Part shown: in pieces, positions 3,501 through 31,030 of the stretch | Numbering within the stretch: the stretch's first letter is position 1 | Layout: every line of letters starts with the position of its first letter | DNA from: Aquimarina sp. MAR_2010_214 | GTDB lineage: Bacteria > Bacteroidota > Bacteroidia > Flavobacteriales > Flavobacteriaceae | Length of the DNA stretch: 64,000 bases | Assembly (NCBI RefSeq): GCF_002846555.1 | Contig: NZ_PJMS01000001.1 | Span: forward strand, 1,860,001-1,924,000 | Direction of reading: 5' to 3' | Notes under the pieces: generated by a model | The model's input: the letters and a program-made list of their open reading frames with translations, nothing else | Databases searched by the model: none | Told to the model about the DNA's origin: nothing | Translations under genes and position numbers: made by a program

Positions 3501-5196
3501 AGGACAATTGAAATCTAAGACTACAGGAGGAGGATTGCAAGAGATAGATTACACCTATAATGTACGAGGTTGGCTGACTAAGATTAACGATCCTAATACT
3601 GCTCTTGGAAACAAACTGTTTGCTTTTGGGATTAATTACAATACCCCACAACACGGGGCTACCGCATTGTTTAATGGTAATATTGCAGAAACAAAGTGGA
3701 AAACTGCCAATGATAATGTAGAGCGATATTACAAATATGGGTACGATGCGCTAAACCGAATCACTAGTGGGAGTAGTAAAGACAATAACTACAACTTAAG
3801 TGATGTTACCTATGATAAGATGGGTAATATTATGAGTCTTACTCGTAGTGGTTTTCAGAACTCAAGCACATTTACGGGTATGGATATATTGGGATATACC
3901 TATGACAGTGGTAATAAGCTACAAAAAGTAACCGATACCGGTAATAAAGGATATGGATTTAAGGATGGTATCAACACCACTGGTAATGATTATGCGTATG
4001 ATACTAGTGGGAACATGATCAAAGATCAAAACAAAGGGATTACAGGGATTACTTACAATCATTTAAATCTGCCTAAAACAGTTACCATAAATAATGCAGA
4101 TCATACCGGAAATATTACCTATATTTACGATGCCACTGGAGTGAAATTAAAGAAGATCACAACAGAGGGAAGTTCATTAACAACAGAGTATGCCGGTAAT
4201 TACATCTATAAAAATGGTAATCTAGAGTTCTTTAACCATCCTGAAGGGTATGTAGAGAAAGAAGCAGATGGGTATAAATATGTATACCAGTTTAAAGACC
4301 ATCTGGGGAATATTAGGTTATCCTATAAAGATGCTGACAAGAATGGCTCTATCTCTCAAAGTGAGATTATAGAAGAGAAGAATTATTATCCTTTCGGTAT
4401 GACTCATTCTGGATATAATAGTATACTACGAGGAAGAAATCATAATTATGGTTTTGGTGGGAAAGAAGAACAATCAGAACTTAGTCTAGAATGGTTAGAT
4501 TTCTCAGCAAGAAACTATGATTCTGCATTAGGTAGGTGGATGAACATTGATCCATTGGCAGAAGCCTACTATGAGTGGTCTCCATATAATTATTCATATA
4601 ATAGTCCTTTGAAATTTACTGACCCTACTGGTATGGGACCAGAGGATTGGGTTGACAAAAATGGTAATCTTGTTTATGACCCAAGTTTAAATGATGGCAA
4701 AGGAGGTTTTACTGAACACGCTACGAATACCGATAAAAATATAGCGAGATCGCTAAGACAAACAGAAGAAGGAGAAGCTCAATTTCAAGAATTAGTAACT
4801 TCTGAAGCCCAAATACAAGTTGAGTTAGACTCAGACTCACCCATAAAGACAGATAAGAAAACTGGCAATGTTATTGCTGGAGAAACAAATAACAGCGAGG
4901 TTGAACAAGACTTAAAAACGGGAGATGTTAAAGTTTTAAAGTCAAAAATAGTTTTATTTGAAAAAACTATTGATGCAGTTGTAGATGCTACCGAAAACCA
5001 AACGGTCGAAGTTGGAGGAGAATCAATAAATGGTTTAAACTTTAGTGAGGTTTTAGGTTCCGTTTTTGGTCACGAAATTGAACATACTACAAATGAAAAT
5101 GAAAAAACGGCTAGAACAAATGGTAATACAGAAACTAAGCCTGTGCAAATTCAAGTCAAGATAATACAACAATTAAAAAAGAATAAAAAGAATTAA
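514..5196 (+). CDS. Secreted RHS-repeat polymorphic toxin with MopE/TSP3-like N-terminal repeats and a zincin-motif tip
   Basis: This 1,560-residue protein starts with a signal peptide (MKNIKLKNIVFLATLFCVLQGYAQ). Residues about 28-445 are Asp/Gly-rich repeats (DGDGDGYGNP, DCNDGNAAIHPNTVWY) of the MopE or thrombospondin-3 calcium-binding style. From about residue 462 there is a DUF6443-like segment (YFDGLGRSIQQ), then YD repeats. The RHS-associated core runs from about 1228 (GNYIYKNG) to DPTGM near 1370. The variable tip of about 185 residues contains GHEIEH at 1519-1524, an HExxH zinc-peptidase motif. Known RHS proteins encapsulate and deliver C-terminal toxins; a peptidase activity for this tip is inferred from the motif only. 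A candidate immunity gene follows 1 bp downstream. The 3' part from 4195 onward is repeated exactly at 10911, which marks the element boundary. Confidence 0.9.
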   Translation: MKNIKLKNIVFLATLFCVLQGYAQVPIGDGNGNNAYFRDGDGDGYGNPNQRVVQSTQPSGYVTNNLDRDDGNALITNVAPKYFYRDGDGDGFGNPNNKKYQSARPSGYILSSGDCNDGNASLHPNTVWYRDGDGDTWGNPGVTKKQCAQPSGYILRAGDYDDGTGLIINIAPKNFYRDVDGDSFGNPNVKTYRSIQPSGYVTKSGDCYDNDPAIHPNTIWYRDVDGDDWGSDQGIGNDDPPTLQQCEQPIGYAIKKGDCNDYNENMHPETVWYKNGDGDGFAETTTIQCVSPGTGYTYEVLPLGDCNDGNAAIHPNTVWYKNSDGDGFAETTKTQCANPGLGYSLTVKPLGDCNDGNAAIHPNTVWYKNSDGDGFAETTRTQCTNPGVGYSLTVKPLGDCNDNDATIHPNTEWYADTEGDGFGDPNTTKKQCGQPTGYVLNNNDQCPEESGTQQGCVFSNENYVFTRAYQEPMTSPGQIGDSKDVIESITYFDGLGRSIQQTAIMASPNEKDIITHIEYDAYGRQSKQYLPFESTNTTGSYKTVSITDDINPYYKARYPKDFIDVDANHQGFNAYSESVFEASPLNRVLEQGAPGKSWKADKEIDIDHTIKFEYSGNTAAEHIVYFKVSFANPDNTATPTLTKVRSYVSGELFVTITKDENWTPTDGNLHTTREYKDKQGQVVLKRTYASTSSATGAPSVVEAHDTYYVYDKYGNLTYVIPPKVTTADGISATELAELCYQYTYDYRNRLIEKKIPSKDWESIVYNKLDQPILTQDANLKADNTWLFTKYDAFGRVAYTGKISITGKDRKQLQTEANAYVDELWVTRGVRVSIGGVDMYYTDGGYPKALAGEVLSITYYDDYGFLGATPQQAFIKPNTIYGEAVSDQTKTLATGSLVKILDTSYWTTTVTYYDKKARPIYIASKNEYLNTTDIIESKLDFVGKVEETKTSHTKDSNAAIVTIDTFTYDHMGRLKEQTQKINTQTPEVIVANTYDNLGQLKSKTTGGGLQEIDYTYNVRGWLTKINDPNTALGNKLFAFGINYNTPQHGATALFNGNIAETKWKTANDNVERYYKYGYDALNRITSGSSKDNNYNLSDVTYDKMGNIMSLTRSGFQNSSTFTGMDILGYTYDSGNKLQKVTDTGNKGYGFKDGINTTGNDYAYDTSGNMIKDQNKGITGITYNHLNLPKTVTINNADHTGNITYIYDATGVKLKKITTEGSSLTTEYAGNYIYKNGNLEFFNHPEGYVEKEADGYKYVYQFKDHLGNIRLSYKDADKNGSISQSEIIEEKNYYPFGMTHSGYNSILRGRNHNYGFGGKEEQSELSLEWLDFSARNYDSALGRWMNIDPLAEAYYEWSPYNYSYNSPLKFTDPTGMGPEDWVDKNGNLVYDPSLNDGKGGFTEHATNTDKNIARSLRQTEEGEAQFQELVTSEAQIQVELDSDSPIKTDKKTGNVIAGETNNSEVEQDLKTGDVKVLKSKIVLFEKTIDAVVDATENQTVEVGGESINGLNFSEVLGSVFGHEIEHTTNENEKTARTNGNTETKPVQIQVKIIQQLKKNKKN
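1282..1704 (+). repeat. Three tandem 141-bp coding repeats in the RHS N-terminal region
   Basis: GG-GATTGTAATGA begins at 1282, 1423, 1564 and 1705, exactly 141 bp apart. Each unit encodes 47 residues of the form GDCND..., HPNTVWYKN.DGDGFAETT and a Cys-containing turn. The second and third copies are nearly identical in DNA, so copy number could change by slippage or recombination. Confidence 0.85.
4188..4211 (+). other. Candidate recombination site 1 (inside the expressed RHS gene)
   Basis: The centre is the perfect palindrome GTAATTAC, followed by ATC and TATAA; the left arm here is GTATG. It encodes EYAGNYIY. This is the exact left boundary of the 6.7-kb repeat unit. A crossover here keeps the RHS reading frame. 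Site function is inferred from the repeat boundaries and the nearby tyrosine recombinases. Confidence 0.6.
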
Positions 5197-5197
5197 A

Positions 5198-5662
5198 ATG
5201 ATGAAGAATATTGTAAAAATGATTTGCTTGTTATTTGTATTAAGTGGTACATCTAATGCTCAGGATAGTGATATTAACTTATCAAATAATTTAAAAAAAG
5301 ATATTGCTGAATTTTTAATATCTAAGGATGTTTTAAAAGAGACAGAAGATATAACAAGGTATTTTAAAACCATCTATATCACCAATTTAAATAATAATGA
5401 TTTTAAAATTGATGAAGAAATAGGTGTATATGCTGTTGGAGCTTCTATAAGTCATACACCAACTTTTTTATTGTTACAAAATAAAAATCAATATGATATC
5501 TATGAAATAAACAACCTTAAATCACTTCTAAATAAAGTATTAGAATTATTAGAGAAAAAAGAAGATTTAGAGGATCAAACTATTGTTAATTATATCAATA
5601 ATATATTTAAAGCATACAATAATAATCTAGCAAAATCACAACAAGGTTTTGTGATTAAATAA
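5198..5662 (+). CDS. Candidate exported immunity protein of the zincin tip
   Basis: This 154-residue protein has an N-terminal signal peptide ending near SGTSNAQ, followed by a Lys/Asp/Asn-rich, probably helical body with no recognised domain. It starts 1 bp after the toxin stop codon, the usual place for a cognate immunity gene, and an identical copy follows the duplicated tip in unit 2. Export would suit protection against a toxin acting in the periplasm. That role is inferred from position and signal peptide; no immunity family is recognised. A bidirectional terminator lies 60 bp downstream. Confidence 0.65.
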   Translation: MMKNIVKMICLLFVLSGTSNAQDSDINLSNNLKKDIAEFLISKDVLKETEDITRYFKTIYITNLNNNDFKIDEEIGVYAVGASISHTPTFLLLQNKNQYDIYEINNLKSLLNKVLELLEKKEDLEDQTIVNYINNIFKAYNNNLAKSQQGFVIK

Positions 5663-5722: not shown

Positions 5723-5757
5723 AAACAGTCATCTAGAAATAGGTGGCTGTTTTTTTA
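5723..5757. terminator. Bidirectional terminator between immunity and XRE genes (unit 1)
   Basis: The stem AAACAGTCATCT / AGGTGGCTGTTT (G-U pairs allowed) has loop AGAAAT and a T tract on the plus strand. It sits between two convergent genes. Confidence 0.75.
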
Positions 5758-6102
5758 TTGTGCTAGTTTTTGAGTAAGGTCTGCTTTAAGTACAAATGCA
5801 GATAGAAAATCTTTTACGGTCTCTTTTTGTTTATCAGAAAGGTTCTGTGCTTTATTAAAAAGACTTAGTAAATCTTGGTCGTCAATAGTTGTTTGTGCCT
5901 TATTCTCTCCATGAACTAATCGATCTAATGACACTTCTAATATATCAGCCATCCTATTGGCAACTTCTAGAGAAGGTATAGAAATATTACGCTCATACTT
6001 AGAAAGGTTCGTTACATGTACTCCTACCTTTTTGGCAAAAGCTTCTTGTGAAAACCCTTTTTGACTTCTTAACTCTTTAAGATTATTACTAAAACTATCC
6101 AT
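5755..6102 (-). CDS. XRE-family transcriptional regulator (unit 1)
   Basis: This 115-residue protein has an N-terminal helix-turn-helix of the Cro/C1 type at about residues 7-62 (LKELRSQKGFSQEAFAKKVG, then the NLSKYERN recognition region). A C-terminal helix of about 40 residues may dimerise. It is divergent from the ATPase-recombinase operon and shares a 171-bp intergenic region rich in repeats, so it probably represses recombination functions and itself. That control is inferred. Its copy in unit 2 is identical. Unit 3 has a different, shorter XRE protein in the equivalent place after the immunity gene. Confidence 0.85.
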   Translation of the reverse strand: MDSFSNNLKELRSQKGFSQEAFAKKVGVHVTNLSKYERNISIPSLEVANRMADILEVSLDRLVHGENKAQTTIDDQDLLSLFNKAQNLSDKQKETVKDFLSAFVLKADLTQKLAQ

Positions 6103-6273: not shown

Positions 6274-7821
6274 ATGTTAGACACCACCAACCCACATAAC
6301 TACAGTTACATCACAAAACAGTTAGAAATCCACATTCTAGGAGGTATTAAGTTTAATAATCTAGAACGTATGCGAGTTACACTAAGCATACAGAAACCAG
6401 AAAATCACAATGTGTTGCGTCATAGTATTGATTTATATAATGATAATACAATAGAGAGATTAGTTAGAAAAGTGGCAGAACGTATAGAAATAGGTACATC
6501 AATAGTGAGGCAGTGCCTCCAAGAGCTTACCGCAGCACTAGAGCAATACCGTATCGATCAGATTAATAAAGAGCAAGAAGTTCCTGTACTTAAATCATTA
6601 TCTAATAAAGAACTGCAAGCCGCAGAAACCTTTTTGCGAAACAAAGACTTACTAAAAAACACCAATGAACTCATCGGTAAATCTGGTGTGATTGGTGAAG
6701 AAACTAACCGATTATTAATGTACCTGATCTTTACGAGCCGTAAAACATCAAATCCATTACATTGTATCAGTCTTGGTAGTTCGGGAGTTGGCAAAACACA
6801 CCTGCAATCTAAAGTAGCAGAATTAATCCCTGATGAAGATAAAGTAGAAATCACAGTATTATCGGCAAATGCCTTTTACTATTTTAATAGAACAGAATTA
6901 CAACACAAGTTAATCTTAATCGAGGATCTGGACGGAGCAGAAAGTGTACTCTACCCATTACGGGAGTTACAATCTAAAAAGAGGATTACCAAAACAGTAG
7001 TTCATAAAGACAAAAAAGGAACAACCAAAACTATACACCTTACTGTAGAAGGTCCTGTATCTGTTGCAGGATGTACTACTCAGGAATCTATTTATGAGGA
7101 CAACAGCAACAGGAGTTTCCTGCTCTATATCGATGAATCTAGTGAGCAGGATAAAAAGATCATGCACTACCAGCGCGCCGAGTCGGCGGGACGAGTAAAT
7201 AAACAAGAGGAGTTTATCGCAGCTAGGTTTTTACGAGATGTACAACGAATCTTAAAACCTATCAAAGTGATCAATCCATATGCAGAATACTTAGAGCTTC
7301 CCGAATCTGTATTTAAACCTAGAAGAACCAATAGCCACTATTTACAATTTATAGAAGCTGTTACTTTTTATTGCCAGTATCAAAGAGAGCGTAAATATGA
7401 TAAGCAAACGGGCGAAGAATATATAGAAACTACCATCGAAGATATACAAGAAGCCAACGAAATTATCAAAGAGGTTTTACTACGTAAAAGTGATACCATA
7501 ACAGGAGCGGTACGAAACCACCTAGAAAGGCTCAAAGCCTACTTAAAAGAAAATACTCAAACTACGTTTACCAATACTGAAATCCGAAGAAACCTACGGG
7601 TAAAAGAAACCACCCTACGCAGATACAATACACAATTACTGGAAGAAGGCTATATCAAACGGGTAAAGAAAGCTAAGACCAAAAGCTACTGTTTTGAGAT
7701 TATAGATATCAATGAATATACAAACCTTAAAACCCAAATAGACAATGCATTAAATACTTGTCTGCATCGACTCGATACCGCCAGTTCGCCACCAAGTCGC
7801 CACCAAGTCGCCACACCCTAA
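6274..7821 (+). CDS. P-loop ATPase with C-terminal winged helix, recombinase-associated (unit 1)
   Basis: In this 515-residue protein, Walker A is GSSGVGKTH at about residue 168 and a Walker B-like LILIEDLDG lies near 213. AGCTTQESIYEDNSNRS near 265 may be a sensor region. A winged helix lies near 430-475 (FTNTEIRRNLRVKETTLRRY). The middle resembles ATPase segments of primase/helicase-type proteins on Bacteroidetes mobile elements, but no primase or Toprim motif is visible. It is first in the operon with two tyrosine recombinases, so a role in recombination or in replication of an excised circle is likely. The exact role is unknown. The last codons lie inside the TCGCCA repeat array, and the stop is in a hairpin loop. 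Unit 3 carries a 510-residue homologue with Walker A GSSAMGKSH. Confidence 0.75.
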   Translation: MLDTTNPHNYSYITKQLEIHILGGIKFNNLERMRVTLSIQKPENHNVLRHSIDLYNDNTIERLVRKVAERIEIGTSIVRQCLQELTAALEQYRIDQINKEQEVPVLKSLSNKELQAAETFLRNKDLLKNTNELIGKSGVIGEETNRLLMYLIFTSRKTSNPLHCISLGSSGVGKTHLQSKVAELIPDEDKVEITVLSANAFYYFNRTELQHKLILIEDLDGAESVLYPLRELQSKKRITKTVVHKDKKGTTKTIHLTVEGPVSVAGCTTQESIYEDNSNRSFLLYIDESSEQDKKIMHYQRAESAGRVNKQEEFIAARFLRDVQRILKPIKVINPYAEYLELPESVFKPRRTNSHYLQFIEAVTFYCQYQRERKYDKQTGEEYIETTIEDIQEANEIIKEVLLRKSDTITGAVRNHLERLKAYLKENTQTTFTNTEIRRNLRVKETTLRRYNTQLLEEGYIKRVKKAKTKSYCFEIIDINEYTNLKTQIDNALNTCLHRLDTASSPPSRHQVATP

Positions 7822-7895: not shown

Positions 7896-8812
7896 ATGAA
7901 AAAATTAAAGCTACAAAACGATAGCTATAAGATACTATTGTCTGATTTTAAGGACTGGTTAGATATCTTAGGCTATAATGAAAAAGCAGTGTATTACACT
8001 CCCATCTTTATACAGGAGTTCTTCTATTGGTTAGAAAACCATGATATCCAACGTTTAGAACAAATTACTATCGATACTGTAAAAGCCTATTATAAATATT
8101 TAGGAGAACGCAGTAACCAACGTACAAGTGGAGGACTAAGCAAAGCCTATCTGAACAAACATCAAAATGCCCTTAGAAAGTTCAGGGAATACCTAAAAAA
8201 ACATGGAGCCAGAACCTTTAAAATACATCTTCGCTTAGAAAAGAAAGAAAGTGCCATAAAAGATATCCTTACCCAGTCAGAGGTCAAACAACTCTTTGAA
8301 GTGACCAGTTACAGTAGTAAGTATCAGCGTACCCGATTAAGAGATAGAGCAATCCTTGTTATATTATACAGTTGTGGTTTACGCAGAAAAGAAGCCGTTA
8401 GCCTTGATATTGGTGATATCCTTTTTGATGCAGGACGTGTGTTTGTTAGACAAGGTAAAAACTATAAAGAACGTTACGTACCCATCAACAAACACAACTT
8501 ACGAATCTTAGAAGATTATATCTACGAAGCACGCCCCATGTATAACGGTAGTCATGGTACAGAAGCTTTACTTATCAATAAATATGGTAACCGTATGCAC
8601 GGTCAGGGTATGAGCAGAAGGTTACAGCATTTATTAACCCTTGTAGATGATCAAACCCTAAAGGAAAAACATATTACTCCACATTGTCTTAGGCATAGTA
8701 TTGCAACCCATCTATTGCAACAAGGTATGCGTATAGAAGACATACAACAGTTCTTGGGCATAGTTCTTTAAAATCAACACAGATATACACACATTTACTC
8801 GAATTATTATGA
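7896..8812 (+). pseudogene. Tyrosine recombinase A, frameshifted near its C-terminus (unit 1)
   Basis: It is identical to the 305-residue recombinase of unit 2 up to codon 287, where GGG (8756-8758) replaces GGGG. The frame then ends at 8771 after 291 residues. The lost part contains the last catalytic His and the nucleophilic Tyr (QIYTH). Arg I (CGLRRKEA) and HxxR (HCLRH) remain. Unless the base is a sequencing error or frameshifting occurs, this copy cannot cleave DNA. Unit 2 could supply the activity in trans. Confidence 0.8.
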
Positions 8813-9699
8813 AAGATTATTATACCTATTTAGAAGAATTACAGCATAGTGAGCAAACCATAAAAACCAACCTTTACAATATTAATAAACTGAAACAGTG
8901 GTGCAGATCAAAACGTACCAAACCAGAAAATCTAACCTACAAACAAGTACTTAACTATATCAACCACCTAAAAACTACGAATCAACCCCAAACCATCAAT
9001 AGACATATTTGGGCAATCAAACATTATTGTACCTATCTGATAGAACAAGGGTATCGAACAGATAATATTGCAGATGATCTTAAAGTAAGAGGAGAACGTA
9101 AAAAGGTCTTCCACAACTTGCTTACTAGTGATGAACTCGAAGACCTGTTTTACAGTTATGAAACCGATAAGATATGGAAGGGTAATTTTTATTACAAAGC
9201 CACTGCAAAACGTAATAAAATGGTAGTAGGATTATTGGTCTACCAAGGAGTATTAAGCAATAACTTTAAATCGTTAGAAGTTGAGCATGTAGACTTACGC
9301 AAAGGAACTATCTATATCCCAAGTACTCGACGTAATGCATGGAGAAAGTTAGCCTTAAAACCCTGGCAGATTATAGAACTCAAAGAATATATAGAAGAAA
9401 TACGACCTATCCTGCAAGATCACATAGGTACAAATGATGAAAAGCTGTTCCCTCTAAATACTCCACAGTTCAATACCATTTTACACCCGATCTTAAAAAA
9501 GCTAAAAACCTATAATCAAAAGGTCACTAACAATACTCATATCAGAGCAAGTGTTATTGTAAACTGGTTAGGACAATACAATATCAGGAAAGTACAACAA
9601 ATGGCAGGACATAGGCATATTAACTCTACAGAATCTTACAAACAAGATAATTTAGAGAGTCTGCATGAAGCTATAGACAAGTTCCATCCAATACATTAA
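8809..9699 (+). CDS. Tyrosine recombinase B, with atypical catalytic residues (unit 1)
   Basis: This 296-residue protein has an N-terminal SAM-like/core-binding domain (about 1-95: TYLEELQHSEQTIKTNLYN) and a phage-integrase-type C-terminal domain. It keeps the second Arg (HIRAS), the GH motif (MAGHRH) and the Tyr (STESYKQ). The usual GLRxxE Arg I is replaced in YQGVLSNN, and the His of HxxR is Thr. The unit 3 homologue has the same changes. Its start overlaps the intact reading frame of recombinase A by 4 bp (ATGA), so the two are translationally coupled and may act as a heteromer, as XerC/XerD do. It could be a catalytically limited subunit; that is inference. Confidence 0.85.
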   Translation: MKDYYTYLEELQHSEQTIKTNLYNINKLKQWCRSKRTKPENLTYKQVLNYINHLKTTNQPQTINRHIWAIKHYCTYLIEQGYRTDNIADDLKVRGERKKVFHNLLTSDELEDLFYSYETDKIWKGNFYYKATAKRNKMVVGLLVYQGVLSNNFKSLEVEHVDLRKGTIYIPSTRRNAWRKLALKPWQIIELKEYIEEIRPILQDHIGTNDEKLFPLNTPQFNTILHPILKKLKTYNQKVTNNTHIRASVIVNWLGQYNIRKVQQMAGHRHINSTESYKQDNLESLHEAIDKFHPIH

Positions 9700-9717: not shown

Positions 9718-9870
9718 ATGAAAATAGAACTTATCATTACCGACAAAGAAGAATTAAGTTATTTACAAAGTTCCTTAGCCGTAGCGATACATGAGTTAAG
9801 TGCATCAGAAAAAAACCATGAAGATAGTATTTATTGGTTATCACAAATCTTGCTTTTATCTTACGAGTAG
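9718..9870 (+). CDS. Small 50-residue ORF after the recombinases (unit 1)
   Basis: ATG at 9718 opens a 50-codon frame, MKIELIITDKEELSY..., with a charged start and a hydrophobic end (SQILLLSYE). It lies 18 bp after recombinase B and could be its third operon member, for example a directionality factor, but it has no recognised motif. The corresponding place in unit 3 has only a 3-codon ATG frame, so it is not conserved across the family. Moderate to low confidence that it is a gene. Confidence 0.4.
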   Translation: MKIELIITDKEELSYLQSSLAVAIHELSASEKNHEDSIYWLSQILLLSYE

Positions 9871-10362
9871 TATAATAACCAAGTGTCTCCTTACAGTCGA
9901 AATATTATTATGGGCGCAGCAAGAAAAATGCTTTGCCCATAAGCTGTTATAAGGTGTTCCTTCGTCACGCCACAAGCTATTTTTTGTTATTCCACAAGTG
10001 CAGAAAAAGCACTTGCTCCATACCGTTCCAACTTCCTCATCTTCGGTCGTCAGTTTACACTACAAACAAATAGCCTTGCTCTGTTCCTCTCTCACCCGTA
10101 GCTACTTTTTTGCTTAAAAACGATAAAGAACGCTATCGCTGAATACTAAATTAAGCAAAACCGCTACTTCATGGGCTACGCCGCTTGGTCGCAACCTAGC
10201 CGATTATTTATGTTGAAGTTAATATCTGATAAAGCTGAAAACATAAAAATCGTCTGGCACACAAAACCGTTACACTCCTTTTTGTGTGTCGGTTGCTCCT
10301 CTCCGCTAGGCTCTCGCCTTGTTCTGCGTACACGCAGTTATCTTCAATCGCCAGATGGCTAT

Positions 10363-10426
10363 GATTAATCTTGAAGCTGAAGGTCAGCCGCAACAGCAGT
10401 TGCGCACTTCAGCTTCAAGATCAATC
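10363..10426 (+). repeat. Long hairpin with nested stem (unit 1)
   Basis: The 20-nt arms at 10363-10382 and 10407-10426 differ at one position. Inside is a second stem, CGCAAC (10389-10394) / GTTGCG (10399-10404), with loop AGCA. A copy lies 6,717 bp downstream. Confidence 0.8.
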
Positions 10427-11912: not shown

Positions 11913-11913
11913 A

Positions 11914-23835: not shown

Positions 23836-24263
23836 CAATAGTAGCACTAGAATCCTACATAAGTCATAGGTAATTCACCGTATATAACTTTCTCCTTCTC
23901 TGGTAAACTAATGATCTGTGTACTGCATTAGTTACAACTTGCTAGTATTTCTGGTTTAAATATATTTTTCAAGGTGGGGTGATACAATTATTACATATCC
24001 ATAAGCGTGTGATAATTAACAAGTCACCCTGCCTTTTGTTTGATAATATCGTAAGTCTGTTATTTATGTATTGCCAGAGGAAGGCAAAATAATGATGTTA
24101 CAATTAGCTACACTTCTTATTAGTACAGGTACAGTAAGATTTTTATAATTTTTTTGAGAAAATTTTCATAGAGCTGTATGAGGTTGATAATTAGCAAGAC
24201 ACCCCTCCCTTTTTTGAGGAAGGGGAAGTACCCCCACCTTGTTAATTATTAAATATCAAGCTT
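23836..24263. other. Gene-free, repeat-rich stretch between cargo genes
   Basis: CAAGGTGGGGT (23970-23980) is inverted at 24230-24241 (ACCCCCACCTTG). GATAATTAACAAG (24011) and GATAATTAGCAAG (24186) begin 30-bp direct repeats. AGGTGGGGTGAT at 23972 also occurs at 21833. It also holds the third CCAGAGG repeat. No ORF is supported. Confidence 0.6.
24073..24110 (+). repeat. CCAGAGG-N17-TTACA repeat, copy C
   Basis: Third copy with the exact spacing. The 5' part forms TTGCC/GGCAA. Confidence 0.6.
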
Positions 24264-24605
24264 ATGGTAACTGTATCAGATTACAAAAAAAGAATCACTC
24301 AAGAAGGAGATGAATTTCTAGTACTTATTCTACAAGGTGGCGTAGAAGCTGTGAAGAGCAATACTACAGGCAAAATGTATTTTACAGCAAAACAATGCTC
24401 TGTGCCAACTACATTTGATGAGCTAACCTGTCAAAGTATTATAGGAAGTCAGTTTCCTGGTACTATTGAGAAAATACAATGTGATCCCTATGAATACATT
24501 TCGGAATCAGGGGATACACTTACACTAGAGCATAGATGGCAATATGTAGATAATACAGAAGAAATGATAGCAGAGCATCTTGTAGAAGATGTCGAAGTGA
24601 TTTAG
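24264..24605 (+). CDS. Conserved-looking hypothetical protein (unit 3 cargo)
   Basis: This 113-residue acidic protein has no signal or membrane segment. Residues 15-40 look beta-rich (EFLVLILQGGVEAVKSNTTGK), with Cys pairs later (KQCSVP, LTCQS) and an acidic C-terminus (HLVEDVEVI). The single domain is reminiscent of small proteins on Bacteroidetes plasmids and conjugative elements, but I cannot name it. It ends at a strong terminator and is the penultimate cargo gene before the ATPase-recombinase operon. Confidence 0.6.
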   Translation: MVTVSDYKKRITQEGDEFLVLILQGGVEAVKSNTTGKMYFTAKQCSVPTTFDELTCQSIIGSQFPGTIEKIQCDPYEYISESGDTLTLEHRWQYVDNTEEMIAEHLVEDVEVI

Positions 24606-24616
24606 GATTTTAATTA

Positions 24617-24656
24617 AAACAGGAGTTTGCACACGTAAGCTCCTGTTTGTTTTTAT
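24617..24656 (+). terminator. Terminator after the 113-residue ORF
   Basis: AAACAGGAG (24617-24625) / CTCCTGTTT (24640-24648), then GTTTTTATA. Confidence 0.8.
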
Positions 24657-24736
24657 ATATAAAGATCTCCCTCTTTTTCAGCTAAAATCAAATCCAGCCA
24701 AACTACTCCTATTACTAATATATAGCTATAATACAC

Positions 24737-24988
24737 ATGACCCAGAAAAAATCAACCAATAGATTAATGTATTGCAATCCCTACAGAATTATGATTTTAA
24801 ACAAATACAACAAACTTCAAGAGCTGCATTGTCCATTTCTGGTAGCAGTAAAATATAACATTTCTGGATTATCAGAAGGGCAAAAGGTACAGGTAGAATT
24901 AGTAAAACTATCTCATAATAGTAAAATAGTTTATATCATACAGAACAAGTGTTATTATTACTACCATTTTAATATTATGGACAGCTGA
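24737..24988 (+). CDS. Small hypothetical ORF upstream of the unit 3 ATPase
   Basis: This 83-residue basic, Tyr-rich protein (KYNKLQELHCPFLVAVKYN, then SEGQKVQVELVKLS) could be a small beta-barrel-type domain. It is 37 bp upstream of the ATPase gene on the same strand. Nothing comparable lies before the ATPase in units 1/2, where an XRE gene is divergent. Coding status is moderate. Confidence 0.45.
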   Translation: MTQKKSTNRLMYCNPYRIMILNKYNKLQELHCPFLVAVKYNISGLSEGQKVQVELVKLSHNSKIVYIIQNKCYYYYHFNIMDS

Positions 24989-25025
24989 AACAGGCTATAA
25001 ACACTCACTTTTTTAAAAATGAAAC

Positions 25026-26558
25026 ATGCTAGACACTACAAATCCTCAAAACTATGAGTACATCACTGATACGTTAGAAATTCATATTCTAGGAGGTATC
25101 AAATTCAACAATCTAGAAAGAATGCGAGTTACTATGAGTATACAAAAACCTAAAGAGAATAATGTATTACGCCATAGTATCGACCTGTATAATGATACGA
25201 TGGTAGAGAAACTGGTACGTAAGATTGCAGAACGCATTGAGATTGGTACAATAATCACCAGAAAGACACTGCAAGAACTTACAGCAGCCCTAGAACAATA
25301 TCGTATTGATACGCTAGAAAAAGAAAATGCAGCTACACAGCAACAGATCAAAGTATTATCAGATAAAGAACAACAGGAAGCTATTAAATTCTTAGAATCA
25401 AGTAACCTACTACAAAAGACTAATGAACTCATAGGTATATCTGGTGTTATTAGAGAAGAAACCAACAGATTATTGATGTATCTGATCTTTACGAGTAGGA
25501 AAACAAACAATCCTTTACATTGTATTAGTTTAGGTTCCAGTGCTATGGGGAAGAGTCATTTACAAAGCAAAGTAGCAGAACTGATACCAGAGGAAGATAA
25601 AATAGAGATCACAGTACTCTCTGCAAATGCCTTCTATTACTTTAACAGAACGGAGCTTAGAAATAAACTGATTCTTATTGAAGACATGGATGGTGCAGAA
25701 TCTGTATTATATCCGCTTAGAGAATTACAGTCTAAAAAGAGAATCACTAAAACTGTAGTGCATAAAGATTCACGTGGTCAGAGCAAGACCATTCATTTAG
25801 TTGTAGAAGGGCCAGTATCTATTGCAGGCTGTACAACACAAGAATCTATTTATGAAGATAATAGTAATAGAAGCTTCTTACTGTATATGGATGAATCAGA
25901 GGTGCAAGATCAAAAGATCATGCAGTATCAACGTAGATCCTCCGCAGGTAAAATTGATAAGAATGAAGAATATGAAGCAGCAAGATTTTTACGAGATGTG
26001 CAGCGTGTATTACAACCTGTTAAAGTGATCAATCCATATGCAGAATATTTATCCCTCCCTCTGGCTGTATTTAAGCCCAGAAGGACTAATACACATTACT
26101 TGCAATTTATCGAAGCTGTTACTTTCTATTGCCAGAGGAAGAGAAAAAGAAAGTATGATCAGCAGACAGGAGAGGAATACATCGAAACTACTATTGAGGA
26201 TATTAGAATGGCTAATCATCTGATAAAAGAGGTGTTGTTACGTAAAAGTGATACCATTACAGGAGCATGTAGAAACTATCTAGAAAGATTAAAATCTTAT
26301 TTAGAAGAAAACAAGAAAAACTATTTTACTGCATTAGAAATCAGAAGAGTATTAAAAATAAAGAAAACAACACAATGGAGATACCACAAGCAGCTAATTG
26401 AAAATTATTATATTAGAACACAGAAAAATGAAAAAGGAGATACAATAATACGATATGAAATTACTAATCTTGATGAATACAAGGACTTAGAATCTTCTAT
26501 AGCGCAAGCACTACAAGATTGTATTACTAAGATTAATAACATTTCCTTACCAGAATAA
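25026..26558 (+). CDS. P-loop ATPase with C-terminal winged helix (unit 3)
   Basis: This 510-residue homologue of the unit 1/2 ATPase is clearly related throughout. Walker A is GSSAMGKSH, Walker B-like LILIEDMDG, the conserved segment AGCTTQESIYEDNSNRS, and a C-terminal winged helix (FTALEIRRVLKIKKTTQWRY). The N-terminus (MLDTTNP.NY.YIT) and the core are conserved, while the last 60 residues diverge. It heads the intact recombinase operon of unit 3. Divergence from units 1/2 shows that units 3 and 1/2 arrived separately. Confidence 0.75.
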   Translation: MLDTTNPQNYEYITDTLEIHILGGIKFNNLERMRVTMSIQKPKENNVLRHSIDLYNDTMVEKLVRKIAERIEIGTIITRKTLQELTAALEQYRIDTLEKENAATQQQIKVLSDKEQQEAIKFLESSNLLQKTNELIGISGVIREETNRLLMYLIFTSRKTNNPLHCISLGSSAMGKSHLQSKVAELIPEEDKIEITVLSANAFYYFNRTELRNKLILIEDMDGAESVLYPLRELQSKKRITKTVVHKDSRGQSKTIHLVVEGPVSIAGCTTQESIYEDNSNRSFLLYMDESEVQDQKIMQYQRRSSAGKIDKNEEYEAARFLRDVQRVLQPVKVINPYAEYLSLPLAVFKPRRTNTHYLQFIEAVTFYCQRKRKRKYDQQTGEEYIETTIEDIRMANHLIKEVLLRKSDTITGACRNYLERLKSYLEENKKNYFTALEIRRVLKIKKTTQWRYHKQLIENYYIRTQKNEKGDTIIRYEITNLDEYKDLESSIAQALQDCITKINNISLPE

Positions 26559-26562
26559 AGGT

Positions 26563-26644
26563 GTTCCACCGTTCCAATCCTGTTCCATTGTATAAATGGA
26601 ACGGATAATTTGTAGAAATACAATAGCTTAACTGAGCTGTTCCA
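26563..26644 (+). promoter_or_regulatory. GTTCCA repeat array with alternative hairpins (unit 3)
   Basis: GTTCCA lies at 26563, 26571 and 26582, the inverse TGGAAC at 26597 and GTTCCA at 26639. The hairpin of the third copy with the inverse has a 9-nt loop, and the inverse-to-last spacing is 42 bp, exactly as in units 1/2 where the word is TCGCCA. Confidence 0.6.
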
Positions 26645-26709
26645 CAAGATTCATAAAAACACATACCGGATGAAAAAAAATAAGTCATGAGCATTGACAG
26701 GCATTACCT

Positions 26710-27627
26710 ATGAAAAAACTGAAATTAGAAAATAGAAGTTATAAGAAGATTTTAGAGGATTTTGAGCAGTGGTTGGATATCTTAGGATATAATGAAAAGG
26801 CAGTATACTACACACCAATATTTATACAAGAATTCTTTTATTGGCTAGAACAACGGGATATCCAAAGATTAGAGCAGATTACTATAGACACTGTAAAAAG
26901 CTATTACAAATACCTGAATGAAAGAAGCAATCAAAGAAGAGATGGAGGATTAAGTAAAGCATACCTAAACAAACATCAAAATGCACTTAGAAAGTTCAGG
27001 GAATACCTGAAAAAGCAAGGAGGTATAGCTTTTAAAATACACTTACGCTTAGAAAAAAGAGAAAGTGCTATAAAAGATGTGCTCACCCAATCCGAAATTA
27101 AACAACTTTTCGAAGTAACCAGTTACAGTAGTAAACACAGACATACAAGAATACGAGACAGAGCTATTCTTGTAGCATTATACAGTTGTGGATTAAGAAG
27201 AACAGAGGCAACCAGTTTAGATATTGGTGATATTCTTTTTGATGCAAGACGTGTATTTGTACGGCAAGGAAAGAATTATAAAGAACGCTATGTACCTATC
27301 AATACATATAATTTGCAGATTCTGGAAGATTACATTTTTGAGGCAAGACCAATATATACTGGCAGTAAAGCAACAGAAGCATTGTTTATTAATAAATATG
27401 GGAACAGATTGCACGGTCAAGATATGGGCAGAAGACTACACCATTTATTAACTCTTATTGATAATGAAATATTAAGGGAAAAACATATTACACCGCACTG
27501 TTTACGACATAGTATTGCTACTCATTTACTACAACAGGGAATGAAGATTGAAGATATACAGCAGTTTCTGGGGCATAGCTCTTTAAAATCAACACAGGTT
27601 TACACTCACTTACTCGAATTATTATGA
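26710..27627 (+). CDS. Tyrosine recombinase A (unit 3)
   Basis: This 305-residue, full-length homologue of the unit 2 recombinase has all catalytic motifs present: CGLRRTEA, HCLRHSIATHLL, GHSS and QVYTH. It overlaps recombinase B by 4 bp. An upstream ATG at about 26670 (after ACACATACCGG) begins a short frame, MKKNKS then a stop. This looks like a relic of the start used in units 1/2, with the present start displaced by a small insertion. Confidence 0.92.
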   Translation: MKKLKLENRSYKKILEDFEQWLDILGYNEKAVYYTPIFIQEFFYWLEQRDIQRLEQITIDTVKSYYKYLNERSNQRRDGGLSKAYLNKHQNALRKFREYLKKQGGIAFKIHLRLEKRESAIKDVLTQSEIKQLFEVTSYSSKHRHTRIRDRAILVALYSCGLRRTEATSLDIGDILFDARRVFVRQGKNYKERYVPINTYNLQILEDYIFEARPIYTGSKATEALFINKYGNRLHGQDMGRRLHHLLTLIDNEILREKHITPHCLRHSIATHLLQQGMKIEDIQQFLGHSSLKSTQVYTHLLELL

Positions 27628-28514
27628 AAAATTATTATACATATTTAGAAAAACTAAATCATAGTCAAAGTACTATAAAACGGAATGTTTACAACATTGG
27701 TAAGCTACAAGAATGGTGCAGATCAAAACGTACCAAACCTGAAAACCTAACATATAAACAATTCCTGAATTATATGAATCATCTGAAAACTACAAACAAA
27801 CCAGAAACTATTAACAGGCATATCTGGGCAGCTAAACATTATTTTACGTATCTGATAGCGCAGGGAGTTCGAGCAGATAATATTGCAGAGGATTTAAAAG
27901 TACGAGGAGAACGTAAAAGAGTATTTCATAATTTACTTACAGGTGATGAACTGGAAGATTTGTTTTACAGTTTTGAAACAGGTAAGATTTGGAAGAATAA
28001 CTTTTATTACAGAGCTACAGCTAAGCGTAATAAAGTAATAGTGGGATTATTAGTATATCAAGGTTTGATCAGTAATAATTTAAGATCACTAATACTAGAG
28101 CATGTTGATTTACGCAGAGGGACAATATATATACCAAGTACAAGAAGAAATGCACAGAGAACACTAACTCTAAAATCTTGGCAAATTATAGAACTCAAAG
28201 AATATATTGAAGAAATACGCCCAATCCTACAAGATCATATAGATACATATGATGAAAAGTTGTTTCCTCTTAATACACCACAGTTTAATGTGATTTTAAG
28301 GCCTACTCTAAAGAAATTGAAAACTTATAATCAGAAGGTTATTAATAACAACCACATCAGAACAAGTGTAATTGTAAATTGGTTAGGGCAATACAATATT
28401 AGAAAGGTACAGCAAATGGCAGGTCATAGATTTATTAGCTCTACAGAATCTTATAAACAAGATAATCTAGAAAATCTGCATGAAGCTATTAATCAATTTC
28501 ATCCATTGAATTAA
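27624..28514 (+). CDS. Tyrosine recombinase B, atypical catalytic set (unit 3)
   Basis: This 296-residue homologue of the unit 1/2 protein shares YQGLISNN in place of the Arg I motif, HIRTSVIVNWLG in place of HxxR, and MAGHRF plus STESYKQ. The same departures in two diverged elements argue that they are functional features and not decay. It probably works in a complex with recombinase A. Confidence 0.85.
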   Translation: MKNYYTYLEKLNHSQSTIKRNVYNIGKLQEWCRSKRTKPENLTYKQFLNYMNHLKTTNKPETINRHIWAAKHYFTYLIAQGVRADNIAEDLKVRGERKRVFHNLLTGDELEDLFYSFETGKIWKNNFYYRATAKRNKVIVGLLVYQGLISNNLRSLILEHVDLRRGTIYIPSTRRNAQRTLTLKSWQIIELKEYIEEIRPILQDHIDTYDEKLFPLNTPQFNVILRPTLKKLKTYNQKVINNNHIRTSVIVNWLGQYNIRKVQQMAGHRFISSTESYKQDNLENLHEAINQFHPLN

Positions 28515-29230
28515 CAATAATATGAAATCATAAGGTTCAGGAGTTGTAGAGCAAAAGCCAGTGATTACCCCAGATTACGGGCTGATCAAAGGAGTTCTTC
28601 AATCAGGCATGCACAGCTACACAAGTTGCTATGCACCGTAACAGCTTCCTCACCTTTGGTCGTCAGCAATTACTACTTGTCTTCACGTGATGCCTTCAAT
28701 CATCACCCGTAGCTACTCTTTTGCTTAAAAACAATAAGGTACGCTATCGCTATACTTTTTATTAAGCAAAACCGCTACTACATTGGCTACGCCGCTATCT
28801 CGCAGCTTAGCTAAAATATTGTGAAGGAGCTATTATCAAATTATGGTCACAATATTTTATCTGGCACACAAGTCACTACGTTCCCTCTTGTGTGTCAGCT
28901 GCTCCACTTCGCAAGGCTACGCCCAGTTTTGCATGCATGCAGCTCATCTTCAATCACCAGATAGGCTAGGATTACTATTAAAGCAGAAGATCAGGCACAT
29001 AATCTCATGCAACTTCTATTTTAATAGAAATCACAATTATTTCTTATGTTTTCATTACTGCTCTCTCTGGTAAACTAACATAGCACTACATAGTAAAGCA
29101 AATACTGTTTTGTTAATGTGGTAGAGAATATAGATTTTACTATTTTAGCTATGAAGATTGATAGATGAGAGAGGACGTTCTTAAATTTTACATTTTAGCA
29201 ATAGTAGACCAGAAAATAGGTTCAAAAAGC
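28515..29230 (+). ncRNA. Structured non-coding region at the right end of unit 3
   Basis: It is the diverged counterpart of 9871-10883. Conserved blocks include CACCCGTAGCTACT, TTTTGCTTAAAAAC, ACGCTATCGCT, TTAAGCAAAACCGCTACT and GGCTACGCCGCT. The stem GGCACACAAG/CTTGTGTGTC replaces GGCACACAAAA/TTTTGTGTGTC, and TTGCAT/ATGCAG replaces CTGCGT/ACGCAG; both are compensatory. CAAAAA/TTTTTG just before the core site (29223-29241) replaces the poly-A hairpin of units 1/2. Confidence 0.6.
29065..29078 (-). repeat. CTCTGGTAAACTAA motif
   Basis: The same 14 bases occur at 23898-23911. The reverse complement resembles the start of the CCAGAGG repeats. Confidence 0.5.
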
Positions 29231-29250
29231 TAGATTTTTTGTATAAAGGA

Positions 29251-29274
29251 GTATGCCGGTAATTACATCTATAA
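29251..29274 (+). other. Candidate recombination site 4 (right end of unit 3)
   Basis: GAGTATGCC-GGTAATTACATC-TATAA. Its left side matches site 1 in the expressed RHS gene (EYAGNYIY), not sites 2 and 3 (DYTGNYIY). Confidence 0.6.
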
Positions 29275-30421
29275 GAATGGTGTATTAGAGTTCTTTAATC
29301 ACCCAGAAGGCTATGTAGAAAAAGAAGCAGATGGATATAAGTATGTATACCAGTTTAAAGACCACCTTGGTAATATCAGATTATCCTATAAAGATGCGGA
29401 TAAGAATGGTTCTATATCGCAAAGTGAGATTGTGCAGGAGAAGAATTATTATCCTTTTGGACTCCAACATCAATATGGTGGAAATGATCCTAGATCAGCT
29501 GTAAATGGTAGAAAGCATAATTATGGGTTTAATGGGATAGAACTTACCGAAAGTTTAGACCTGAACCTTTATGAAATGGATTTACGACAATACGATCCTG
29601 CAATTGCAAGGTGGACAAGTATTGATCCTGTTACACATCATTCTAACTCTACTTATAATGGTTTTGATAATAATCCTGTGTTTTGGGCAGACCCCAGCGG
29701 TGCATCGGTTGAACAAATTAATGGAGGTGTTCGATATACTGGAGAACATGCAAAACTTGCTTTTGGAGCATTACAAAAACAATATGGAGGAACAGATCCA
29801 AAAAAGAAGAAGAAAGGAGAAAAGAAAAAAGCTACAGTAACTACAGGAGATCCCGTAGCCTACGGTATTGAAGGAGATAACAACAGAAGTGAAATGCCAG
29901 ATTTTATAAAAAGTGCGGATGTTGGCCATTATAACACTTCATTTACAGGGACGACAGAAGAATATAACTTGCAATATGGTACGGATTATGTAGCAGGAGA
30001 ACAGAATTACAATAAATACTATTATGATTTCTATTACAGGCCAAGATTAAGTGCATTAAGAGGTAGTATTCAAGCATCACAAGCAGAAGCAGCAGAAATG
30101 TTGATGTATATATTACCAACAGGTCCTACAGCTGCAGTTGGAGCAGTAAAGGGAGCTATGTCTTTAGGTAGATTTTCAAAACACCTAAAAACTACTTATC
30201 AAGTGATCACTAAAGGGGTTAGAAGAGCTAAAACTGGAGATATTATGTTTTCAGTGGGAGTAAGGAATAGAGTAACTAATTATATGATTCGTCTAGAAAG
30301 AGGGAGTTTTAATACCAGGAAAGGGGTTCCTATTTTTACAACACATATTAATTATGGTTTAGGTGGCGGCAAGAAACATTTATTTTTGAACCGTATTAAA
30401 AAAGCAAAAATAAAACTATGA
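29258..30421 (+). CDS. Terminal orphan RHS core with a third tip (unit 4)
   Basis: From GNYIYKNG this frame runs through the core (FKDHLGNIRLSYKDADKNGS, YPFGLQHQYGG, DPSGAS) to a Lys-rich linker (DPKKKKKGEKKKATV). A hydrophobic, helix-forming segment is next (AEMLMYILPTGPTAAVGAV), then a basic C-terminal domain with RLERGSFNTRKG and FTTHINYGLGGGKKH. The tip family is not recognised; the basic His/Lys-rich end would suit a nuclease, but that is a guess. There is no start codon of its own; the GTG at 29432 is internal. No recombinase module follows, so this may be the original tip of the RHS gene. Confidence 0.75.
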   Translation, partial: GNYIYKNGVLEFFNHPEGYVEKEADGYKYVYQFKDHLGNIRLSYKDADKNGSISQSEIVQEKNYYPFGLQHQYGGNDPRSAVNGRKHNYGFNGIELTESLDLNLYEMDLRQYDPAIARWTSIDPVTHHSNSTYNGFDNNPVFWADPSGASVEQINGGVRYTGEHAKLAFGALQKQYGGTDPKKKKKGEKKKATVTTGDPVAYGIEGDNNRSEMPDFIKSADVGHYNTSFTGTTEEYNLQYGTDYVAGEQNYNKYYYDFYYRPRLSALRGSIQASQAEAAEMLMYILPTGPTAAVGAVKGAMSLGRFSKHLKTTYQVITKGVRRAKTGDIMFSVGVRNRVTNYMIRLERGSFNTRKGVPIFTTHINYGLGGGKKHLFLNRIKKAKIKL

Positions 30422-30912
30422 TATCGATAAAAAATATTATTAAAGAGCTTAATGTTTTTTTGCAAAAACAAACTACTGAGAATAATTATATAATAGTTGT
30501 TAGTTATTTATTAGACAATTATATGTCACTAATATCAGATTTAATTATAGTTGATTTTTCAGTAACAGAAAAGGAACATCACTTATCATTTAAAAAAAGT
30601 AGTGAAGATTTTATTTTCTTAGCTTTAACTAGAAAATATATTGAATTGCGTTTTCTTTCCCATGAACAAATGGTCTTCTTTGATGAGACTGAAAAATTTG
30701 AAAAGCTAGAGGTTTTATTAAGATCTTTTTTTAAGGGAGAATATCAAATTGAAATTCAACGGAACAAGAATGGAAAATCAATTTATAAACAAATTAAGTG
30801 GTTAAATAAGGATTTGGAACTTTTTAATGAAGAATACGAACTTAGTAGTTCTAAAGAAGTCGAAACTATTGATAACCTAAAGGGTATAGATTTCACGAGT
30901 GATGCTCGGTAA
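30418..30912 (+). CDS. Candidate immunity protein for the unit 4 tip
   Basis: This 164-residue acidic, Glu/Lys/Phe-rich protein has no signal peptide. Its ATG overlaps the tip stop codon (ATGA), so translation is coupled. No family is recognised. It is followed by a sequence block and terminator nearly identical to those after the unit 3 immunity gene. Confidence 0.65.
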   Translation: MISIKNIIKELNVFLQKQTTENNYIIVVSYLLDNYMSLISDLIIVDFSVTEKEHHLSFKKSSEDFIFLALTRKYIELRFLSHEQMVFFDETEKFEKLEVLLRSFFKGEYQIEIQRNKNGKSIYKQIKWLNKDLELFNEEYELSSSKEVETIDNLKGIDFTSDAR

Positions 30913-31030
30913 TAGGTCAAACTGGTGCTTTTAAAAAAGAGTATTATAAAGTTTGATTATCAAATAAATTATATAAGTAAAAAAGAGCTGTAGAAATGCA
31001 GCTCTTTTTTTATGCTCTAGAGTGAACTAA
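30910..31030 (+). repeat. Shared sequence downstream of immunity genes (unit 4 copy)
   Basis: GGTCAAACTGGTGCTTTT, then TTGATTATCAAATAAATTA and a terminator, matches 19264-19390. The unrelated genes upstream make this a conserved cassette boundary. Confidence 0.75.
30982..31012 (+). terminator. Terminator after the unit 4 immunity gene
   Basis: AAAGAGCTGTA/TGCAGCTCTTT stem, GAAA-type loop, T tract. Confidence 0.85.

What the first reader, a model, noticed from the sequence alone, without database searches (positions are those of the whole stretch)
4195..31012. RHS-tip integrative elements: recombinase-bearing units that swap the toxin tip of one RHS gene
One complete RHS gene is followed by three orphan tips, each beginning at the same core sequence. 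The three intervals each carry an ATPase, two tyrosine recombinases and a structured end. Frames are preserved across every junction. Insertion of such a circle at the core site would put the new tip and immunity gene on the RHS N-terminus and push the old pair downstream as a silent orphan, as seen here. The last orphan lacks a recombinase module, as expected for the ancestral tip. RHS orphan tips and C-terminal displacement are known; a tip carried by a dedicated recombinase element inserting in the core is, to my knowledge, not well described.
Basis: partly seen in the sequence, partly recalled or inferred. Interest (0 to 1): 0.88.

Follow-up and report, generated by a model that had tools for sequence, protein, structure and literature searches.

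The report
Mobile elements that swap toxin tips
Small mobile DNA elements appear to insert at one exact spot inside a bacterial weapon gene, give it a new toxin end with the matching antidote, and push the old toxin end aside, which points to a dedicated machine for changing bacterial weapons.

Summary
Three integrative elements (window 4195-29258) follow one RHS gene; each carries an RHS tip, immunity gene, ATPase, two tyrosine recombinases, a structured noncoding region and a core. The Aquimarina-like genome has 13 at four RHS loci. Recombinase clades track insertion sites (27 distinct TR2 proteins, 10 site states, 9 changes, the minimum). The same 6.7-kb element is identical at two RHS genes whose flanks differ. 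A displaced tip keeps an unoccupied core, placing the exchange at GG in GGTAATTAC. The ATPase matches part of CHC2/toprim primases that sit in the same neighbourhood at RHS and CdiA-type genes elsewhere. For the E. coli relatives, strains KKo009 (empty) and E04 (filled) show insertion within 12 bp of rhs. RHS tip displacement is known but was ascribed to homologous recombination; ten searches of open-licence papers found no such element. Not shown: recombination, a circle (two circular plasmid records fit but may be assembly products), replication, the roles of TR2 and the structured region. Homologous recombination also reshuffles units (E. coli MP1/R12), and displaced tips also occur without recombinases.

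The parts
514..5196 (+). RHS gene (DUF6443, RHS repeats, Rhs_assc_core); body 514-4194 plus the currently fused tip from the core at 4195
4195..4211 (+). class-1 core GGTAATTACATCTATAA, left end of unit 1 (codes GNYIYK)
5198..5662 (+). putative immunity gene of tip 1 (by position)
   Evidence: no Pfam family
5755..6102 (-). HTH_3 regulator of unit 1
6274..7821 (+). ATPase (P-loop, likely AAA+) with C-terminal winged-helix-like part, unit 1
7896..8771 (+). tyrosine recombinase TR1 of unit 1, reading frame shifted (291 aa against 305 in unit 2)
8809..9699 (+). tyrosine recombinase TR2 of unit 1
9869..10441 (+). conserved structured noncoding region, unit 1
10828..10927 (+). right end of unit 1: ACGTTCTTA motif (10828) to core (10911-10927)
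10911..17627 (+). unit 2, copy of unit 1: tip frame 10884-11912, immunity 11914-12378, HTH 12471-12818(-), ATPase 12990-14537, TR1 14612-15529, TR2 15526-16416, noncoding 16586-17158
17628..29257 (+). unit 3 (class 1, diverged): tip frame 17601-18806, immunity 18809-19264, cargo 19742-24988, ATPase 25026-26558, TR1 26710-27627, TR2 27624-28514, structured region within 28581-29009
23161..23835 (+). AbiV-like HEPN cargo gene in unit 3
29258..30421 (+). last displaced tip, from the core on (open frame 29234-30421)
30418..30912 (+). putative immunity gene of the last displaced tip

Best explanation
The intervals are integrative elements dedicated to exchanging the toxin tip of RHS genes. An element (tip 3' coding region, immunity gene, regulator, ATPase, TR1, TR2, structured noncoding right end) recombines by its own core with the matching conserved codons of a resident RHS gene. 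The RHS N-terminus then reads into the incoming tip and immunity gene, and the old tip is left behind the element's right end. Recombinase clades use their own cores within the RHS C-terminal region, so elements nest and the array records past tips. SHOWN: architecture, edges at cores, clade-site match, internal unoccupied core, an empty/filled strain pair for the E. coli relatives. INFERRED: TR1 catalyses the exchange with TR2 as a non-catalytic or half-catalytic partner; a circle is the intermediate; the ATPase, homologous to primase-linked ATPases, helps the free circle persist or assists recombination; orphan tips are mostly silent; tips are antibacterial toxins.
For: 13 TR pairs, each with one copy of the noncoding region, all at four RHS loci. 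Units W2 and C2 identical over 6717 nt at two RHS genes; W1/C1 79% alike in the 600 nt left of the core; 76% alike in the 300 nt right of the last core; at that core no difference for 1500 nt to the left and a first one at position +2. Class-2 element B2/D1 99.9% alike; left flanks of B1/D1 85%, sequences after the right core 45%. Junction positions in RHS are discrete; 13 of 13 own-genome elements follow the clade-site rule; 27 distinct TR2 proteins, 10 site states, 9 changes (no shuffled control). Unoccupied class-1 core inside a displaced tip: 189 nt of left flank as in the occupied gene, 113 nt from the core as in the displaced tip; empty GCC/GGG, products GCC/GGT and ACA/GGG. E. coli KKo009 (empty) against E04 (filled): right flank 99.97% over 9197 nt starting at GATCCGATAGGG, left flank 99.3% over 12 kb to the same core, insert 9498 bp including an IS66 element. 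Displaced tip type C6 occurs in G015 fused to an RHS body contiguous from reference position 887. TR1 keeps Arg-I, His-II and Arg-II in 64 of 64. Neighbourhood RHS, immunity position, HTH, primase, TR, TR, RHS tip in Aureispira and Aureibacter plasmids.
Against: No excision or recombination assay. TR2 lacks Arg-I in 61 of 61 and the box-II His in 55 of 61, so a simple two-recombinase mechanism is uncertain. E. coli MP1 and R12 differ by one unit, but the breakpoint is 705-771 nt left of the core, which is homologous recombination. E. coli PapRG-06-5 has a tip 97% like MP1's displaced at another rhs locus with no primase or XerC annotated, so tips also get displaced or survive without the module. 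Tandem neighbours with near-identical units carry identical tips (W, B, C, D), so that growth may be duplication rather than new arrivals. Of 44 units of the genus set with enough downstream sequence, 3 have no RHS tip and 3 have an RHS match only 4.5-6.3 kb away. L041 lies in another clade yet maps to the class-4 site. E. coli elements share only distant ATPase similarity with the window's (Lonsdalea type 27%) and have one recombinase, so the strain pair supports the class, not this exact subfamily. In KKo009 the RHS frame ends soon after the core and a separate ORF follows, so the pair shows insertion, not exchange between two intact toxins.
Confidence: 0.87

Rival explanations
1. Classical C-terminal displacement: RecA-dependent homologous recombination between conserved RHS cores of tips and genes, the recombinases being passengers.
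For: Proposed for enterobacterial rhs (PMC2935791, passages). MP1/R12 show that homologous recombination does delete or add units. A displaced tip without recombinase genes exists in PapRG-06-5. Tandem units are near identical.
Against: At the sites read to the base, exchange lies within 2-12 nt although the shared RHS region runs over hundreds of nt; breakpoint position follows the recombinase clade.
Confidence: 0.07
2. Ordinary integrative elements or small plasmids that use RHS genes as a safe insertion site and carry the tip only to repair the interrupted gene; toxin change is a by-product.
For: Elements that restore the 3' end of their target gene are known (recalled). Primase genes and two small circular records suggest plasmid-like life.
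Against: The restored ends differ from the displaced ones and bring their own neighbour (immunity) gene; the module lies behind the 3' end of RHS, CdiA/FHA-type or FG-GAP genes in the five annotated plasmid cases with a large gene upstream. Host benefit is not measured, so this differs from the main reading mainly in who benefits.
Confidence: 0.2
3. Reversible switching: recombination between core copies in one array loads old tips back, a phase-variation system.
For: Cores are repeated in direct orientation and genes in the immunity position behind displaced tips stay open in the cases listed.
Against: No strain with a re-loaded older tip at the same locus was looked for or seen beyond the E. 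coli cases read; one genome per Aquimarina species was searched.
Confidence: 0.25

Closest known systems
RHS C-terminal displacement (Jackson 2009, PMC2935791; passages read)
   Same: Intact rhs gene followed by displaced tips that keep core fragments; circular intermediates proposed.
   Different: [quoted passage not shown] Here recombinases travel with the tip and use fixed cores.
Orphan cdiA-CT/cdiI and rhs modules (Poole 2011, PMC3150448; passages)
   Same: Orphan toxin/immunity modules behind CdiA or Rhs genes, considered mobile.
   Different: Recombination between VENN-encoding sequences was proposed; the term integrase does not occur in the text held.
Polymorphic toxin cassettes (Zhang 2012, PMC3482391; passages)
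   Same: Standalone toxin-immunity cassettes replace the 3' toxin region in one recombination event.
   Different: In the 12 of 19 places shown, XerC/D recombinases are noted only beside polyimmunity loci; the text held is cut at 300,000 characters.
Rhs-associated integrases of bee gut bacteria (Steele 2017, PMC5727410; passages)
   Same: Integrase-like genes near Rhs tips; a role in transfer was suggested.
   Different: No element, target core or boundary in the passages seen. May be the same kind; not compared here.
Recombinase-associated immunity arrays, rAID (PMC12247911; passages)
   Same: Bacteroidota, tyrosine recombinase, toxin-related cargo.
   Different: Arrays of orphan immunity genes; no toxin tip and no insertion in the toxin gene in the passages seen.
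Gamma-mobile-trio (GmtY; NCBIfam name, otherwise recalled)
   Same: Tyrosine recombinase element with defence or offence cargo.
   Different: TR1 scores 33 bits against a cut-off of 340.

Membership tests
RHS C-terminal displacement locus | complete rhs gene followed by truncated tips with core fragments | tested here: met
RHS C-terminal displacement by homologous recombination alone | variable core-fragment length, no dedicated recombinase | tested here: not met
   discrete starts that follow the recombinase clade; but MP1/R12 and PapRG-06-5 show the classical kind too
Tyrosine-recombinase integrative element | element-borne recombinase with intact catalytic residues | tested here: met
   TR1: Arg-I, His-II, Arg-II 64 of 64, His-III and Tyr 63 of 64, Lys 59 of 64; unit 1's own copy is frameshifted
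Tyrosine-recombinase integrative element | empty and filled sites with a duplicated short core | tested here: met
   E. coli relatives; internal unoccupied core in this genome
Tyrosine-recombinase integrative element | excised circle | tested here: inconclusive
   two complete circular plasmid records made of such units, but assembly of a tandem array is possible
Integrative conjugative or mobilizable element | relaxase or conjugation genes in the element | tested here: not met
   no such Pfam match among the unit proteins scanned; the smallest ORFs and three cargo ORFs were not scanned
Integron cassette | integron integrase over the family cut-off | tested here: not met
   TR1 97 bits against 265; attC sites not modelled
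Gamma-mobile-trio | GmtY recombinase over the family cut-off | tested here: not met
   33.4 of 340 bits
Known structured RNA | match to an Rfam family | tested here: not met
   no match at E<=1 in window 1-34000

The most novel reading that the evidence does not exclude
A cross-phylum family of small plasmid-like elements lives off bacterial contact weapons. Each carries only the toxin end of a polymorphic toxin, its antidote, a recombinase and a primase-type replication gene, and inserts in the coding core of the host's RHS or CdiA gene. The host's delivery protein then carries the element's toxin, while the antidote ties the host to the element. In Aquimarina the family also carries a new ~550-nt structured RNA or DNA.
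Probability: 0.6. Interest if true: 0.93.

Novelty: new variant of a known kind. Interest (0 to 1): 0.86.

Why it matters
How polymorphic toxins change their C-terminal domains has been put down to homologous recombination. A dedicated element with a recombinase, a fixed target core and an empty/filled strain pair makes the process testable in E. coli. It would explain why orphan tips come with immunity genes and in ordered arrays, and would make toxin tips themselves mobile selfish DNA.

Tried and rejected
RNA-guided targeting: longest shared words between the structured region and core flanks are hardly longer for the own class (mean 8.27, n=253) than for others (8.03, n=559), both with maximum 11: not supported. 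A known RNA family: none in window 1-34000. Structured region as a family-wide feature: a covariance model of part of it hit 5 of 9 genus loci given and, below E 0.4, none of the 19 family-level loci given (best 0.48) nor L007 and L008; a sequence profile had found one short hit in one family-level locus (F286). ATPase fold: two AlphaFold models with mean pLDDT 34 and 43, not used. Viral contigs: no ATPase relative; phages: five Sulfolobus viruses with weak partial hits. MP1/R12 as a site-specific insertion pair: rejected, breakpoint 705-771 nt off the core. Paper searches (10 of 10) cover open-licence PMC papers only; longer lists were capped (25 of 34, 15 of 17 and 12 of 37 shown). None of the titles and abstract starts listed describes recombinase-borne tip elements; absence from print is not shown.
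Full report
WHAT IS THERE. The window is bases 1860001-1924000 of a 5.98-Mb single-contig genome. Of the eight named loci that encode a TR2 relative, six are Aquimarina. An RHS gene (514-5196; DUF6443, RHS repeats, Rhs_assc_core) is followed by three units of the order tip, putative immunity gene, HTH regulator on the other strand (units 1 and 2), 510-515-aa ATPase, two Phage_integrase-family recombinases TR1 and TR2, 0.7-1.2 kb noncoding, core, and then a last tip with its neighbour gene. The cores GGTAATTACATCTATAA lie at 4195, 10911, 17628 and 29258. Units 1 and 2 are copies (one 1-nt deletion); unit 3 is 82% alike in TR2 and carries cargo with an AbiV HEPN gene.

THE GENOME HAS 13 OF THEM. 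TR2 relatives occur 13 times, at four RHS loci: window W (3), B at 3.13 Mb (2), C at 5.14 Mb (5), D at 5.77 Mb (3). One copy of the conserved noncoding region, searched over the whole genome, matches 13 places on the same strand, one per element (the one in unit 3 partial), plus four weak self-complementary hits inside elements. In the genus, 23 of 52 genomes, this one included, have a TR2 relative at 1e-15; in the family, 18 of 397 genomes, 17 of 231 genera, at 1e-25.

RECOMBINASE CLADE AND SITE. Mapping displaced tips on the window's RHS protein gives discrete starts: 1223-1225 (Y.GNYIYK), 1262 (DHLGNIR), 1161-1162 (NGNMI), 1290-1291 (NYYPFG) and singletons. Elements of this genome obey 13 of 13: W1-W3, C1, C2, D2, D3 at the first; B1, B2, C3, D1 at the second; C4 at the third; C5 at the fourth. 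On a tree of 27 distinct TR2 proteins with a readable junction, 10 site states need 9 changes, the minimum (eight duplicate proteins dropped, units without a junction left out, no shuffled control; L041 maps to 1290 although it sits in another clade). Of 62 TR2 matches of at least 100 residues (own genome, genus loci, five named loci), 36 have an RHS match within 3.2 kb downstream; 3 have one 4.5-6.3 kb away; 23 none, of which 18 meet a contig end. Of the 5 with room, two (L044, L048) show an RHS-like tip by eye and three (L008, L032, L052) none. In the 16 family-level stretches read, 16 of 19 downstream RHS matches that I counted by eye start at 1290-1294, the others at 1166, 1276 and 1309; eight units or fragments have none.

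EDGES AT BASE LEVEL. Units W2 and C2, at different RHS genes, are identical over 6717 nt, and W1/C1 differ only by the 1-nt deletion. The 600 nt left of the core (W1/C1) are 79% alike, the 300 nt right of the second copy's right core 76%. Left of that right core W and C do not differ for 1500 nt, and the first difference to the right is at core position +2. The class-2 element B2/D1 is 99.9% alike; the left flanks of B1/D1 are 85% alike and the displaced tips 45%. Locus C also preserves an unoccupied class-1 core inside its displaced fifth tip: its left flank equals that of the occupied RHS gene for 189 nt (up to the class-3 core), and from the core rightwards it equals the displaced third tip for 113 nt (near the class-2 core). 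Empty reads GCC/GGG, left product GCC/GGT, right product ACA/GGG, so the exchange lies at the GG. Nested insertions at cores 3, 2 and 1 would leave this pattern if the incoming and resident segments between the cores were alike (inference).

THE PROTEINS. Of 88 TR1 and 91 TR2 matches, 64 and 61 distinct near-full-length sequences without stops were aligned. TR1 keeps Arg-I, His-II and Arg-II in 64 of 64, His-III and Tyr in 63 of 64, Lys in 59 of 64. TR2 lacks Arg-I in 61 of 61 (three have an Arg within two columns) and has His-II in 6, but keeps Arg-II, His-III and Tyr in 59 of 61 each (columns assigned from a joint alignment, motif names recalled). The ATPase has a P-loop and matches AAA_22 in 18 of 24 members at E up to 1, best 1.2e-5. 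tblastn links it to the C-terminal part of CHC2/toprim primases on plasmids (28 records, best 5e-73, 27-34% identity in the 20 listed).

THE NONCODING REGION. Of 27 distinct long copies, 26 were aligned (L025 left out); they give a 77-pair consensus; 28 pairs have changes on both sides against 13.0 (s.d. 1.7) in shuffles (0 of 500 reach it), and the covariation score is 0.177 against 0.080 (shuffled) and at most 0.043 (slid). The structure was derived from the same alignment. One copy folds 6.5 s.d. below shuffles, its complement 4.9. Rfam has no match. RNA or single-stranded DNA cannot be told apart here. A model of part of it finds it in 5 of 9 genus loci given, not in the 19 family-level loci given, though a sequence profile gave one short hit there. 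In E. coli the ~0.9 kb between recombinase and core folds 2.5 s.d. below shuffles, with 1 of 20 shuffles as low.

THE SAME THING ELSEWHERE. In an Aureispira plasmid and Aureibacter pAT2 the order RHS, hypothetical gene in the immunity position, HTH(-), toprim/CHC2 primase, TR, TR (the second unnamed in Aureispira), RHS tip recurs. In Enterobacter and Paraburkholderia plasmids the module with one XerC-like recombinase follows a CdiA/FHA-type gene, and in a Janthinobacterium plasmid an FG-GAP-repeat gene; in Paraburkholderia the displaced tip resumes inside the pretoxin region. In E. coli, 59 of 5426 complete genomes match the Lonsdalea primase gene at 1e-20 (196 places). Near nhoA, strains MP1, R12, E04 and A36 have RHS tip, immunity position, SymE, HTH, primase, XerC units (an IS66 element in E04, a frameshifted RHS gene in A36), and displaced tips of MP1 and E04 resume at DPIGL. 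E. coli KKo009 has the same locus without annotated primase or XerC, and the sequence displaced in E04 follows its RHS body directly; its RHS frame ends soon after the core and a separate ORF follows. Aligned, the right flank is 99.97% identical over 9197 nt from GATCCGATAGGG on and the left flank (99.3% over 12 kb) runs to the same 12 bp; the insert is 9498 bp including the IS66 element. FHI_NMBU_03 has a 99% copy of that tip fused to its RHS gene. The tip is in 86 of 5426 genomes; only E04, FHI_NMBU_03, KKo009 and, as a remnant, MP1 were read.

FREE FORMS? An 11,289-bp circular Lonsdalea populi plasmid holds two RHS-tip units, one with a decayed primase, a toxin-antitoxin pair and little else. 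An 8,758-bp circular Shigella flexneri plasmid holds a unit whose XerC, HTH and SymE have the same accessions as in the EC77 chromosomal array. Both may be excised circles or assemblies of tandem arrays.

EMPTY STATE IN RELATIVES. The toxin part of the last tip of locus C has 61% relatives in two of 51 other genus genomes. In G015 it is fused to an RHS body contiguous from reference position 887 to 1374; in G036 the shorter contig shows 1123-1374 with a frame break. For the window's last tip only partial relatives were found (3 other genomes of 52).

AGAINST. MP1 and R12 differ by one unit with a breakpoint 705-771 nt off the core, so homologous recombination between units also works. PapRG-06-5 has an MP1-like tip displaced at another rhs locus with no primase or XerC annotated. 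Tandem neighbours here have identical tips. TR2's defective catalytic set is unexplained. Toxicity is inferred: one tip of this genome matches Toxin-JAB1 and another a Hint domain below its cut-off, and the window's tips match no Pfam toxin.

PRIOR WORK. [quoted passage not shown] Poole 2011 and Zhang 2012 describe mobile orphan modules and cassettes; Steele 2017 saw integrase-like genes near Rhs and left their role open. These were seen as passages only. The element reported here would supply the recombinase that this model lacked.

Noticed in passing
L120, L122, L124, L126 (E. coli): E. coli rhs loci near nhoA carry primase-XerC tip units, with an antisense-oriented SymE gene; a strain-level system for testing tip exchange.
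   Followed up: partly
L115, L116, L113: Same primase-XerC module at CdiA/FHA-type genes of Enterobacter and Paraburkholderia plasmids and at an FG-GAP gene of a Janthinobacterium plasmid.
   Followed up: partly
L114 and further Leptospira plasmid records (13 Leptospira records in each): Leptospira plasmids hold the related primase; L114 also a tyrosine recombinase. Toxin tips were not looked for.
   Followed up: no
window 9869-10441, 16586-17158, 28581-29009: Conserved covarying structured region without Rfam match; by eye, some segments exist in alternative versions that do not follow the recombinase class.
   Followed up: partly
TR2 of the aligned units: Second recombinase lacks Arg-I in 61 of 61 yet keeps Arg-II and Tyr in 59: an unusual conserved partner.
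   Followed up: partly
L119, L123: E. coli EC77 and A36 have arrays with frameshifted genes and IS elements in or beside the tips.
   Followed up: no
L121 (E. coli PapRG-06-5): A displaced tip with SymE but no primase or XerC annotated, at a different rhs locus (between ybfA and ybgA).
   Followed up: no
window 31439-33007: ORF of 522 aa with four repeats about 350-420 nt apart just behind the array.
   Followed up: no
window 1282-1789: 141-nt repeats in the RHS N-terminal part (MopE-like metal-binding motif nearby).
   Followed up: no
L044, L048: Distant recombinase class at another RHS family with tips starting near FSGGM.MP.
   Followed up: no
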